Shown here one piece after another: positions 15,005 through 42,047 of a stretch of 42,047 nt of DNA; positions within the stretch are counted from its first letter, which is position 1; each line of letters starts with the position of its first letter. Source of the DNA: an uncultured Solirubrobacterales bacterium (GTDB lineage: Bacteria > Actinomycetota > Thermoleophilia > Solirubrobacterales > Solirubrobacteraceae); the NCBI GenBank assembly GCA_903821395.1, contig CAIJLJ010000038.1, positions 1-42,047 on the forward strand, read 5' to 3'. The translations under genes were made by a program, and so were the position numbers. A model generated the notes under the pieces. That model saw only the letters and a list, made by a program, of their open reading frames with translations. It did no database searches and had not been told where the DNA came from.

Positions 15005-16312
15005 TCAGGAAGGGCTGGTAGGCACTGCGCTCTCGACGATTAGGTCGAGCGCTTGGCGCTGCGAGAGCTCTTCGATCAGGTCGTCAAGACGGTTGGCCTT
15101 CTCAAGCCGTTCTCGCAGCTTCTCCGGCGTGGTCTGCTCCTGCGCGGCCGAGGCCTGCAGCGCGGTGAGGATGTCTCCATCGCCTGGCTGAATGTCCTCT
15201 GCCTCGACGATCGCCACCAGCGCTGCCTCGTGGCGCAAGCTCTTCTGCGCAGCCTCAGCGCTCTCACCGAGCATCTCTTCTTCGGTGCGGCCCGAGATCT
15301 GGAAATACATCTCGCGGCTGATGCCCTGGTGTGAGAGCTGGTGGAGCATGCGGTCGAGCAGCTCGCTGGCGCGCGCGTCAACGAGCGGCTGGGGCAGATT
15401 GATCTTGGCGTTGTCTGCGACGGCGTCGAGCACCGCTTCGCGGAATTCTTCCTCAGCTTTGTCACCATCGGCCGCGAGCATCTGAGTCGCGAGATCCTCG
15501 CGCAGCTCGGCAATCGTCTCGAGTCCAGCGGCCTCGTTGGCGAACTCGTCGTTTAGCTCGGGGAGAATCCGGCGGCGGATCTCGGTCGCCGTGACGGCAA
15601 ACTCTGCATCCTTGCCGGCCAGCTCCTCTGCTTGGTAGTCCTCAGGGAAGGCGAGCTTGACGGTCCGCTCGTCGCCGGCCTTTATGCCCTCGAGCTGCTC
15701 CTCGAAGCCTGGAATCAGACGCCCGGAGCCGAGCTCAATCAGCTGGTCGGTTCCCTCGCCACCCTCGAAGACCTCTCCATCTATGGAACCGACGTAGTTC
15801 ATCACAACAAAGTCACCGGTCGCGGCGGCTTCTTCGACTGTTTCAAGGCTTGCCATCCTGCCGCGCAGCTCTTCGATCTGGGCGTCGATCGCTTCCGGCT
15901 CGGCAACCGCTTCGCGGCGCTCAACCTTCAGTCCCTTGTACTTGCCAAGCTTGGCGACAGGACGCACCCCGACCTCAAAGCTGAACTTCAAATCCTCACC
16001 GGCCGGCGGCAATTCGCCGAGTTCAACCTCGGGCTGGCCGACGATTGCGAGGCGGGCGCCATCAACGGCTTCTGTGTACCAGTGACCAAGCGAGCCGCGG
16101 ATTGTCTCGTCAACGACCGCGTCACGGCCGATCCGCTGGATTACGACCTCGGCCGGAATCTTGCCTTTGCGAAAACCGGCCATCTTCATCTCTTTGCCCA
16201 TCGAACGGGCGGTTTGAGCGATCCGGCGATCGAGCTCTTCGAGCGGTACCTGAACCTCCACGCGGACGCGCGAATCAGGCAGCTCTTTGACGTTGGCAGT
16301 GACTGTGCTCAT
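15005..16312 (-). CDS. tig: Trigger factor (ribosome-associated chaperone, peptidyl-prolyl isomerase)
   Basis: This chaperone binds at the ribosomal exit tunnel and helps nascent chains fold. From ATG 16312 it has 435 residues. The N-terminal ribosome-binding domain has the GFRKGKIP signature. An FKBP-type isomerase domain follows (about 160-240, DFVVMNYVGSIDG), then a long helical C-terminal domain. A GTG at 16321 would add three residues (MPP). A TATCGT box 7 nt before ATG 16312 supports the ATG and a leaderless transcript. tig-clpP-clpX order is widely conserved. Confidence 0.97.
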   Translation of the reverse strand: MSTVTANVKELPDSRVRVEVQVPLEELDRRIAQTARSMGKEMKMAGFRKGKIPAEVVIQRIGRDAVVDETIRGSLGHWYTEAVDGARLAIVGQPEVELGELPPAGEDLKFSFEVGVRPVAKLGKYKGLKVERREAVAEPEAIDAQIEELRGRMASLETVEEAAATGDFVVMNYVGSIDGEVFEGGEGTDQLIELGSGRLIPGFEEQLEGIKAGDERTVKLAFPEDYQAEELAGKDAEFAVTATEIRRRILPELNDEFANEAAGLETIAELREDLATQMLAADGDKAEEEFREAVLDAVADNAKINLPQPLVDARASELLDRMLHQLSHQGISREMYFQISGRTEEEMLGESAEAAQKSLRHEAALVAIVEAEDIQPGDGDILTALQASAAQEQTTPEKLRERLEKANRLDDLIEELSQRQALDLIVESAVPTSPS

Positions 16313-16319
16313 CGGCGGC

Positions 16320-16329
16320 ACGATAGCGT
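16320..16329. promoter_or_regulatory. Shared bidirectional -10 element, ANNNTANNNT, between tig and the 47-residue gene
   Basis: The 10-mer is ACGATAGCGT. On the minus strand it reads TATCGT, 7 nt before the tig ATG. On the plus strand it reads TAGCGT, 6 nt before the GTG at 16336. The two boxes share the central TA. Only 23 bp separate the two start codons, so any -35 contact must fall inside the opposite gene. Confidence 0.55.
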
Positions 16330-16335
16330 CAGGGC

Positions 16336-16479
16336 GTGGCCAACGACCGCCAGCCCCTACCGCGCAGGATCGAAACCTGGGTCGTAACCGGCCCCGTCGG
16401 CCATCTGCTCTCCGCCGCCGGCGACTGGGCCGTATTGCTTACGACTTTGGCGCGCGATCGGATCAGCCGCGGCAACTGA
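16336..16479 (+). CDS. 47-residue protein of unknown function
   Basis: This is a small open frame from GTG 16336 to TGA 16479, divergent from tig. The product has a short basic N-terminal part (PLPRRIETW), a moderately hydrophobic middle (VVTGPVGHLLSAAGDWAVLL) and a basic tail (ARDRISRGN). It is not a convincing membrane span. Evidence for a real gene is a protein-like composition and a properly spaced TAGCGT box. An in-frame stop at 16324 excludes a longer form. No family is recognised. Confidence 0.6.
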   Translation: MANDRQPLPRRIETWVVTGPVGHLLSAAGDWAVLLTTLARDRISRGN

Positions 16480-27016: not shown

Positions 27017-27026
27017 AGTATACGGT
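27017..27026. promoter_or_regulatory. Shared bidirectional -10 element, ANNNTANNNT, between the PAP2-type and epimerase genes
   Basis: The 10-mer is AGTATACGGT. The minus strand reads TATACT, 9 nt before the TTG at 27007. The plus strand reads TACGGT, 6 nt before the GTG at 27033. The central TA at 27021-27022 is common to both. The gap between start codons is 25 bp. Confidence 0.55.
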
Positions 27027-27032
27027 TGGGGG

Positions 27033-28013
27033 GTGCAGCTCGGCGGGCAAAGAATCGCAGTAACTGGTGCCGGTGGCTTCATCGGTCAAGCACTCTGCCG
27101 GAGACTGGCCGAGGAAGGCGCTCAAGCGGTCGGGCTCGACCGGCGCGCCGAGACTCGCGCCAGCGTAGAGGCATTCGGGGCCGAGTTCATAGCCGTCGAC
27201 GTACTCGACAGTGCCGCGGTAGCAGACGCAATCGCCGGCTGCGATGGGTTGATCCACACCGCGGCGATCGTCGGCGATTGGGGCTCAATGGAACAGTTCA
27301 TCGAAGTTAACGTGCGCGGCAGTTGCTCGGTTTTTGATGCCGCCGAGGGCGCTGGAATCCGGCGCCTCGCGCACCTCTCCTCGGTAGCCAGCTGGGGTTA
27401 CGAATTCAGCGACGACCTAGAAGAGGACGCCGCTCCGCGCGCGACCGGCGCACCGTACGCGGACACAAAGGCAGCCTCTGATTACCTCGCGCTTCGCCGC
27501 GGGGCAGCTGTCGTGCGACCCGGCGACGTCTACGGCCCGGGCTCAATTCCCTGGACTATTCGCCCAATCGAAGCGCTCCGCGCAGGGACGTTCGCCCTCC
27601 CCGGAAAAGGTGACGCCTTTATGACTCTCGTCTACATCGATGACCTAGTCGACTGCATCCTCCGAGCTCTAACAACCGAAGCTGCCGCCGGAGAGGCCGT
27701 AACTGCATGGGACGGCGAGGCGATTACGACCAGCGAGTTCTTCGGTCGCTACGCGCAGATGCTTGGAATGAAGAAGGTGCGCACCGCGCCGGCGCCATTG
27801 ATCGAGGCGCTTGCGATTGGAGCCGAGCTGGTGGCAAAGCTGAGCGGCAGCGAGCCGACTGTAAGCCGCGAAGCTATCCGCTACGTCTCACGCCAAGCCA
27901 CCTACCCGAACGCGCGCGCGATCGAGTTGCTCGGCTGGGAGCCGCAGATCGATTTCGATGAAGGGATGAAGCGGACCGAACTCTGGCTGCGGAGCGAAGG
28001 TCTGCTCGGTTAG
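27033..28013 (+). CDS. NAD(P)-dependent epimerase/dehydratase (SDR family)
   Basis: The 326-residue extended short-chain dehydrogenase has the nucleotide motif VTGAGGFIGQALC (about 10-22), DVLDSAAVADAI, HTAAIVGDWG and the catalytic YADTK (Tyr-x-x-x-Lys, in GAPYADTKAASDYLALR). The C-terminal part resembles sterol/sugar epimerases (VYGPGS, FMTLVYIDDLVDCI). The start is GTG, and its stop interlocks with that of the convergent hydrolase. The substrate is unknown. Confidence 0.92.
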   Translation: MQLGGQRIAVTGAGGFIGQALCRRLAEEGAQAVGLDRRAETRASVEAFGAEFIAVDVLDSAAVADAIAGCDGLIHTAAIVGDWGSMEQFIEVNVRGSCSVFDAAEGAGIRRLAHLSSVASWGYEFSDDLEEDAAPRATGAPYADTKAASDYLALRRGAAVVRPGDVYGPGSIPWTIRPIEALRAGTFALPGKGDAFMTLVYIDDLVDCILRALTTEAAAGEAVTAWDGEAITTSEFFGRYAQMLGMKKVRTAPAPLIEALAIGAELVAKLSGSEPTVSREAIRYVSRQATYPNARAIELLGWEPQIDFDEGMKRTELWLRSEGLLG

Positions 28014-40805: not shown

Positions 40806-41222
40806 CTAGCGCGCTGAGGAGCTGCGAAGCAGCTCAGCGGTCCCAGCGATCTGGCGCGGGTCGCCCGGCGCCGGCTGCCACGGAAGCTGGAGCGGGTCGC
40901 CTTCGTAGCGCGGAATCACGTGGATGTGGAAGTGAAAGACGGTCTGCCACGCAGCCGGCTGGCAGGAATTGAGCAGGTTGATTCCGTCCGCCCCGAGCCT
41001 CTCGCGGGCGATTAGCGCTGTCTGCTGCGCGGCGCTGATACATGCAGCCAAGTCGACAGCAGGAATGTCGTACAGATCGGTCGAGTGGGCCCGTGGGATG
41101 ACGAGCGCATGGCCTCGAGTAGCCGGGTTGATGTCCATGAAGGTGATCGTGCGCTCGTCCTCGGCGACGATCTCGGCTGGGATCGTGCCAGCGACAATCG
41201 CGCAGAAGAGGCAATCGGTCAT
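40806..41222 (-). CDS. HIT family hydrolase
   Basis: This is a histidine-triad nucleotide-binding protein that probably hydrolyses adenosine phosphoramidates or dinucleoside polyphosphates. From ATG 41222 it has 138 residues, normal for the family. It starts MTDCLFCAIVAG with the Cys4/Cys7 pair often seen with bound zinc. The HIT motif HFHIHVIP (His97, His99, His101) is intact. A start at 41291 would reach into the divergent peptidase gene and is rejected because of the TACGCT box. Confidence 0.95.
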   Translation of the reverse strand: MTDCLFCAIVAGTIPAEIVAEDERTITFMDINPATRGHALVIPRAHSTDLYDIPAVDLAACISAAQQTALIARERLGADGINLLNSCQPAAWQTVFHFHIHVIPRYEGDPLQLPWQPAPGDPRQIAGTAELLRSSSAR

Positions 41223-41229
41223 ACCCCAA

Positions 41230-41239
41230 AGCGTAACCT
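41230..41239. promoter_or_regulatory. Shared bidirectional -10 element, ANNNTANNNT, between the HIT and M28 genes
   Basis: The 10-mer is AGCGTAACCT. The minus strand reads TACGCT, 7 nt before the HIT ATG (41222). The plus strand reads TAACCT, 6 nt before the M28 GTG (41246). The TA at 41234-41235 is common to both. The start codons are 23 bp apart. Confidence 0.55.
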
Positions 41240-41245
41240 CTAGCT

Positions 41246-42047
41246 GTGCCTCGAGCGACGAAAGATCAGCTTGCGAAATCAGCACGCGCACTGATAGACG
41301 AATTGGCTGAGTTTGAACGGCCGTCTGCGTCCGACGCCGAACGACGCGCTGGCGTCCTCATTGCTGCGCAGCTAGAGGCAGAAGGCTGCACGGCAGCCAT
41401 CGAGCGTGAACAAGCCCACGGCACCTACTGGTGGCCGCTTGGGCTGCTTACGTTCGCGTCCGGTGTGGCCGCCCTGTTTCGTTCGCGACTGGTCCGAATT
41501 ATCGCCGGTGCGTTCACGGCCACAGCGCTAGCCGATGACATCAGCGGCGGGACGCAGTGGTTCCGCCGCGCCGCGCTGCCGCAGCGGGCGACGTGGAACG
41601 TCGTCGCCGAGACCGGCGATCCGACGGCGCGCGAGACAATTGTCTTCGTGGCCCATCACGATGCGGCCAATTGGAGCTTGCTTTTCGCTCCCCAGATCCC
41701 GGAGTTTTTCGGTGAGCGGTTTCCGGCGCAATTGGAGCGATCCCACACGACTCCGCCGATCATGTTTCCTGTTTTCGCCGGACCGGTCCTCACCTTGCTG
41801 AGCGGCCTGACCGGGTCAAACCTGCTCCGCCGGGCGGCGGCCGTGCTGTCGCTCGGGAGTGCCATCACCTTTGCGGAAATCGGTTCACGCTCTGTCGTTC
41901 CCGGCGCTAATGACAATCTCAGCGGCGTTGCCGTGCTCACGGGATTGGCCCGCCTACTACGAGATGAGCCTGCGCCTGGGCTACGCGTTCTGCTCGTCTC
42001 GACCGGGTCCGAGGAGTCCTTCATGGAGGGGATGCGCGGTTTTGCGA
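41246..42047 (+). CDS. M28 family zinc peptidase-like protein (3' end cut by window edge)
   Basis: 267 codons are visible from GTG 41246, open to the right edge. The N-terminal part (about 1-75) is charged, then has a short hydrophobic stretch (TYWWPLGLLTFASGVAALF). The peptidase core shows IVFVAHHDA (first zinc His), PGANDNLSGVAVLTGLARLL (bridging Asp region, the GADDNASG motif) and LVSTGSEESFMEGM (catalytic Glu pair). Two further hydrophobic stretches suggest membrane association. Substrate is unknown. Confidence 0.85.
   Translation, partial: MPRATKDQLAKSARALIDELAEFERPSASDAERRAGVLIAAQLEAEGCTAAIEREQAHGTYWWPLGLLTFASGVAALFRSRLVRIIAGAFTATALADDISGGTQWFRRAALPQRATWNVVAETGDPTARETIVFVAHHDAANWSLLFAPQIPEFFGERFPAQLERSHTTPPIMFPVFAGPVLTLLSGLTGSNLLRRAAAVLSLGSAITFAEIGSRSVVPGANDNLSGVAVLTGLARLLRDEPAPGLRVLLVSTGSEESFMEGMRGFA

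What the first reader, a model, noticed from the sequence alone, without database searches (positions are those of the whole stretch)
41222..41246. Third divergent pair with the shared -10 design (HIT / M28 peptidase)
AGCGTAACCT (41230-41239) gives TACGCT 7 nt before the HIT ATG and TAACCT 6 nt before the peptidase GTG. Start codons are again 23 bp apart. Three of about seven divergent boundaries in 42 kb use this nearly identical geometry. Symmetric -10 elements with divergent transcription are known in bacteria, but such a fixed 23-25 bp leaderless unit with both start codons at its edges seems unusual.
Basis: partly seen in the sequence, partly recalled or inferred. Interest (0 to 1): 0.7.

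Follow-up and report, generated by a model that had tools for sequence, protein, structure and literature searches.

The report
Two-way leaderless promoter between genes
A 10-base stretch between two genes that point away from each other appears to start transcription of both, so close that each messenger RNA begins at or next to its start codon; relatives keep these 10 bases while the surrounding bases change, so it looks like a real, selected version of a known type of two-way bacterial promoter.

Summary
Confirmed: at 41220-41248 the window reads CAT-N7-AGCGTAACCT-N6-GTG, giving TANNNT -10 hexamers on both strands that share one TA. The genome (Solirubrobacteraceae MAG, Thermoleophilia) is rich in leaderless TANNNT-N6-start genes. 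In seven same-genus HIT/M28 pairs the 10-mer is invariant (0/10 columns variable) while spacers (10/13) and third codon positions (46/48) vary. The window's other two pairs (trigger factor/47-aa ORF; PAP2/epimerase) behave alike, and the trigger-factor core ACGATAGCGT is recognisable across two families of the order. Where the plus-strand partner is missing, its half loses the final T while the other half stays (full core 32/39 with partner, 1/11 without; that one carries a fused partner). Genus-wide this geometry is about 17-fold commoner than the average other spacing. Cores are not palindromic and no -35 was seen: two -10 elements, not an operator. Best reading: bidirectional, leaderless, -10-only promoter, the 23-bp class already reported for E. 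coli. The start gap is not fixed in other genera, and the window's 3 of 7 is a local excess. New: double-leaderless compactness, preference for 23 over 18 bp, deep conservation. No transcript data were available.

The parts
41230..41239 (.). Shared 10-bp core AGCGTAACCT (AnnnTAnnnT): two -10 hexamers overlapping at TA (41234-41235)
   Evidence: invariant in 7/7 genus orthologues
41234..41239 (+). Predicted -10 element TAACCT of the M28 peptidase gene; predicted +1 = 41246 (G of GTG)
   Evidence: final T lost in L017/L048 where M28 is replaced
41230..41235 (-). Predicted -10 element TACGCT of the HIT gene; predicted +1 = 41223 or 41222 (A of ATG)
   Evidence: TANNNT-N6/7 before the HIT start also in other genera
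40806..41222 (-). HIT-domain protein (138 aa)
   Evidence: Pfam HIT E=1.7e-22
41246..42047 (+). M28-family peptidase, GTG start, runs off the window
   Evidence: Pfam Peptidase_M28 E=3e-8; start position is GTG or ATG in all 7 genus members
16320..16329 (.). Shared core ACGATAGCGT of the trigger factor / 47-aa ORF pair
15005..16312 (-). Trigger factor (tig)
   Evidence: Pfam Trigger_N, Trigger_C, FKBP_C
16336..16479 (+). 47-aa small protein, conserved motif W-x-VTGPxGHL, GTG start
   Evidence: HMM hits in 39 of 50 tig loci; no Pfam or NCBIfam family
27017..27026 (.). Shared core AGTATACGGT of the PAP2 / epimerase pair
   Evidence: 9/9 closest genus orthologues identical; AGTATAGGTT in L288
26063..27007 (-). 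PAP2-family protein, TTG start (GTG at this place in L288); spacer N9
   Evidence: Pfam PAP2_3
27033..28013 (+). NAD-dependent epimerase, GTG start (ATG in L281, L286, L288)
   Evidence: Pfam Epimerase

Best explanation
The 10-mer is a bidirectional, -10-only core promoter. RNA polymerase with the housekeeping sigma factor can melt the same TA step in either orientation: one way it reads TAACCT and starts at the GTG of the M28 gene, the other way it reads TACGCT and starts at (or 1 nt before) the ATG of the HIT gene. Both mRNAs are leaderless or nearly so; the intergenic region is little more than the promoter core. Because the two hexamers share only TA (positions -12/-11), the remaining bases of each can be set separately, and overlapping footprints should let only one polymerase bind at a time. 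Shown here: the geometry, its over-representation, conservation of the core, and selective decay of one half when its gene is lost. Inferred: the start sites, the sigma factor, actual transcription and mutual exclusion.
For: Leaderless signal: in the own-genome sample TANNNT lies 6-10 nt before the chosen start in 57 of 200 genes, peak at 6, against 0-5 per column for the ATNNNT control. Conservation: 0/10 core columns vary against 10/13, 8/13 and 6/15 spacer columns and 46/48, 46/48 and 39/48 third codon positions at the three pairs. Over-representation: 98 genus hits against 19 controls; with matched spacers, 58 shared hits (20 cores) against at most 7 unique sequences per gap for non-overlapping pairs. 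Depth: ACGATAGCGT or a variant at tig across families f1 and f2; 28 exact matches against 2 controls in 250 class genomes. Natural loss: full core 32/39 with partner, 1/11 without, Fisher P=1.8e-5 by locus and 3e-4 by genus; the exception has a fused partner; where M28 is replaced, TAACCT has become TAACCG. No palindromy (0.71 vs 0.88 expected by shuffling); hexamers are the same kinds as at single genes and no -35 preference was seen.
Against: No RNA data. Start codons are predictions in MAGs. Loci within the genus are not independent. 7 of 39 tig loci with the partner lack the full core, so the design is not obligatory. On the PAP2 side the spacer is 9 nt and itself largely conserved, so that gene has a short leader or another constraint. 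Over-representation alone could reflect compaction.
Confidence: 0.86

Rival explanations
1. Two ordinary leaderless promoters that share a TA only because the genome is compact; there is no functional coupling and no benefit beyond saving space. (This keeps the promoter reading and disputes only coupling, so it overlaps with the best explanation.)
For: The genome is small (1.98 Mb) and leaderless; hexamers are the same kinds as at single genes; divergent leaderless pairs also occur at many non-overlapping spacings.
Against: Overlap by TA is far commoner than gaps of 0-10 bp, which would be almost as compact (0-4 sequences per gap), and the unit is also enriched in larger genomes of the class.
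Confidence: 0.4
2. The 10-mer is an operator for a regulator that controls both genes.
For: The whole 10-mer, including the N positions, is conserved; ACGATAGCGT is nearly palindromic.
Against: Different pairs have different cores (31 distinct in the genus) with less palindromy than shuffled halves; partner-less loci lose one end only; gene functions are unrelated.
Confidence: 0.04
3. One direction only is a real promoter; the other hexamer is coincidental or reflects the inherent symmetry of -10 elements, and that gene has a distant promoter.
For: Divergent RNA from symmetric -10 elements is often antisense and non-coding in enterobacteria (PMC10268837).
Against: Both halves are conserved when both genes are present, and only the orphaned half decays.
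Confidence: 0.07
4. Chance match in a motif of only four fixed bases.
For: Four specified bases plus start codons occur by chance about once per genome (controls).
Against: Fivefold excess in the genus, invariant orthologous cores and the partner-loss pattern.
Confidence: 0.01

Closest known systems
Bidirectional promoters of Warman, Grainger and colleagues (Nat Microbiol 2021, cited in PMC12825309 and PMC10268837)
   Same: Overlapping -10 elements on opposite strands; predicted start sites 23-24 bp apart, one of the reported preferred distances (18 commonest, 10 and 23 also common); between divergent genes
   Different: Here both transcripts are predicted leaderless, and for gene pairs the 23-bp form is enriched (f1 32 vs 3 control, f7 50 vs 9) while the 18-bp form is barely so (f1 8 vs 4, f7 22 vs 12)
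TANNNT leaderless genes of Actinobacteria (PMC3160421; M. tuberculosis, PMC3898074)
   Same: TANNNT without a -35, about 12 bp (counted from its first T) before the start codon; no Shine-Dalgarno
   Different: Those studies treat single genes; the shared double-leaderless core is not described in the parts read
M. tuberculosis Rv1129c/Rv1130 and other closely juxtaposed divergent promoters (figure legend in PMC3898074)
   Same: Divergent neighbours, both leaderless by TSS mapping
   Different: I did not test whether their -10 elements share a TA

Membership tests
Bidirectional promoter (shared -10) | -10 elements of opposite strands overlap | tested here: met
   AnnnTAnnnT at all three pairs
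Bidirectional promoter (shared -10) | Divergent TSSs 7-25 bp apart (18, 10 or 23 preferred) | not testable with these tools
   Predicted 23-24 bp from the hexamer positions; no 5'-end data
Bidirectional promoter (shared -10) | One short fragment transcribes both ways | not testable with these tools
   Comparative support only: each half persists with its gene
Leaderless TANNNT gene | TANNNT about 12 bp (from its first T) upstream of the start codon | tested here: met
   N6 and N7 spacers; genome-wide peak at N6
Leaderless TANNNT gene | No Shine-Dalgarno site | tested here: met
   Only 6-7 nt lie between -10 and start, with variable sequence
Leaderless TANNNT gene | mRNA 5' end at the start codon | not testable with these tools
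   No RNA data
Regulator operator | Dyad symmetry or one common motif across sites | tested here: not met
   31 distinct cores, palindromy below the shuffled mean

The most novel reading that the evidence does not exclude
A class-wide, selected gene-pairing device: a 10-bp core plus two start codons forms a complete divergent unit in which mutually exclusive polymerase binding sets the ratio of two leaderless mRNAs, with the 23-bp geometry preferred because it lets the two hexamers be tuned separately.
Probability: 0.25. Interest if true: 0.62.

Novelty: new variant of a known kind. Interest (0 to 1): 0.46.

Why it matters
It is comparative evidence that both halves of a bidirectional bacterial promoter are kept by selection: the core stays over large divergence, and the half that loses its gene loses its -10. 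It also shows how small a divergent regulatory region can be, and gives a simple rule for finding true start codons and missed small genes in Thermoleophilia.

Tried and rejected
The 18-bp arrangement between starts was tested and is not enriched in the genus (10+8 hits, below its reversed controls) and only weakly in the class. A conserved -35 was looked for and not seen. An operator was considered and rejected on palindromy and core diversity. My gene caller missed two of the three window pairs in their shared form (M28 runs off the end; the 47-aa ORF is too short), and starts such as TTG were left out, so its divergent-pair counts are rough. Pfam and NCBIfam gave no family for the 47-aa and 79-aa partners. 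Paper searches combining leaderless with bidirectional or divergent promoters found no description of such units; the 2021 source paper is not held. The phylum-level scan is mixed, because AT-richer lineages have high controls, and I drew no conclusion from it.

Full report
Observation. The sequence at 41220-41248 is CAT ACCCCAA AGCGTAACCT CTAGCT GTG. On the plus strand TAACCT ends 6 nt before the GTG of an M28-family peptidase; on the minus strand TACGCT ends 7 nt before the ATG of a HIT-domain protein (Pfam). With the last T at -7, the predicted +1 is the G of GTG on one side and 41223 or the A of ATG (41222) on the other. An in-frame TAA inside the core (41234-41236) rules out an upstream M28 start.

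Organism. The window is contig 38 of a 1.98-Mb genome; its nearest named relatives are Solirubrobacteraceae MAGs. In sampled stretches TANNNT sits 6-10 nt before the chosen start in 57 of 200 genes, with its peak at 6 and almost nothing outside that range; the control ATNNNT shows no peak. The genome is therefore rich in leaderless genes, as described for Actinobacteria (PMC3160421; PMC3898074).

Conservation. Orthologues were found by protein similarity, not by the motif. In the seven genus members with adjacent HIT and M28 genes in this arrangement, 0/10 core columns vary, against 10/13 spacer columns and 46/48 third codon positions. The trigger-factor pair gives 0/10, 8/13 and 46/48 in 11 genomes; the PAP2 pair 0/10, 6/15 and 39/48 in nine. 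GTG and ATG replace each other at the M28 and epimerase starts, and TTG becomes GTG at the PAP2 start in the more distant L288, which supports the start calls. In other genera, and in some members of this genus, the HIT/M28 pair is wider apart or absent, so this particular unit is lineage-specific; L058 has a different core (ACCCTAGACT) of the same design. The trigger-factor unit is much older: ACGATAGCGT or a close variant is present in two families of the order with trigger factors only about 47-60% identical, while the distance to the tig start varies from 7 to 11 nt. In 250 class genomes the exact core between start codons has 28 matches against 2 controls; those in families f1 and f2 are tig pairs, whereas family f7 uses the same 10-mer between a probable acetyltransferase and a probable DNA polymerase I gene (my reading of the translations). 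The same sequence at an unrelated pair points to polymerase, not to a gene-specific regulator.

Enrichment and geometry. In 17 genus genomes CAT-N6/7-AnnnTAnnnT-N6/7-RTG has 98 hits against 19 for the reversed pattern. With comparable spacers, non-overlapping -10 pairs at gaps of 0-30 bp have about 90 hits spread over 31 gaps, at most 7 unique sequences each, against 58 for the shared form. Allowing for about 10 chance hits among the 58, the shared form is about 17 times the average gap. The arrangement behind the commonest E. coli distance (TANNNTA, 18 bp) is not enriched here. In 61 class genomes the 23-bp form totals 245 against 95 controls and the 18-bp form 172 against 128; family by family the 23-bp form is 32 vs 3 (f1), 50 vs 9 (f7) and 7 vs 0 (f10), but 35 vs 36 in f8. 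At phylum level the picture is mixed: AT-richer lineages have high controls.

Natural experiment. Among 50 tig loci, the full AnnnTAnnnT core is present in 32 of 39 with the small partner and 1 of 11 without (Fisher P=1.8e-5; by genus P=3e-4), while the tig-side A...TA persists almost everywhere. The single exception (G064), and its sister G061 where my window missed the core, carry the partner as the start of a longer, apparently fused protein. At the HIT locus of one genome M28 is replaced by a gene on the other strand and TAACCT has become TAACCG, leaving TACGCT intact. Seven loci keep the partner without the full core; there the partner is probably served by another promoter. Relatedness is only crudely handled by the genus-level count.

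What it is not. The 31 distinct cores of the genus are less palindromic than shuffled halves (0.71 vs 0.88 matches), the hexamers are of the same kinds as single promoters, and no -35 preference appears. An operator or a chance match is therefore unlikely.

Relation to known systems. Bidirectional promoters with overlapping -10 elements are established, with TSS distances of 18, 10 and 23 bp (PMC12825309) and a working range of 7-25 bp (PMC10268837). M. tuberculosis has many closely juxtaposed divergent promoters and at least one double-leaderless pair (PMC3898074). The present unit works like the 23-bp class; the defining transcription data are not testable here. The differences are that both genes are predicted leaderless, that the 23-bp form is preferred over 18 bp for gene pairs, and that conservation reaches across families. 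I found no description of this combination in the held literature, which is not proof of absence.

Limits. No transcript data; start codons are inferred; the genome is an incomplete MAG; and the 3-of-7 density of the window is not representative of the genome. Mutual exclusion of polymerases is inferred from overlapping footprints and from work on E. coli promoters, where basal firing was too low for competition unless one direction was strongly activated (abstract of PMC12825309).

Noticed in passing
window 16336-16479 (+): 47-aa small protein divergent to trigger factor, conserved across Solirubrobacterales (motif W-x-VTGPxGHL), with no Pfam or NCBIfam family; easily missed by annotation. 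In G061/G064 it looks fused to an NAD-binding protein.
   Followed up: partly
L009, divergent to DUF34/NIF3: 79-aa ORF without any family, paired with NIF3 through the conserved core AGGGTAGAGT in many genus members.
   Followed up: partly
L010: Glyoxalase-fold / metallo-beta-lactamase-fold divergent pair with core AGCGTAGCCT seen in most genus genomes.
   Followed up: partly
L254-L257, L260: Family f7 of the same class uses the identical 10-mer ACGATAGCGT between a probable GNAT acetyltransferase and a probable DNA polymerase I gene.
   Followed up: partly
genus-wide: Non-overlapping divergent leaderless -10 pairs are also far above control (about 90 vs 2) and seem to cluster at gaps of 11-13, 19 and 24-30 bp; orthologues were not collapsed.
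   Followed up: no
L042, L046, L048: Public contigs titled Bifidobacterium breve hold HIT loci closest to Solirubrobacteraceae; the organism label looks wrong.
   Followed up: no
L245, L246: The -10 of the small partner has changed in G031 and G028 although partner-like sequence remains; possibly genes in decay or with a moved promoter.
   Followed up: no
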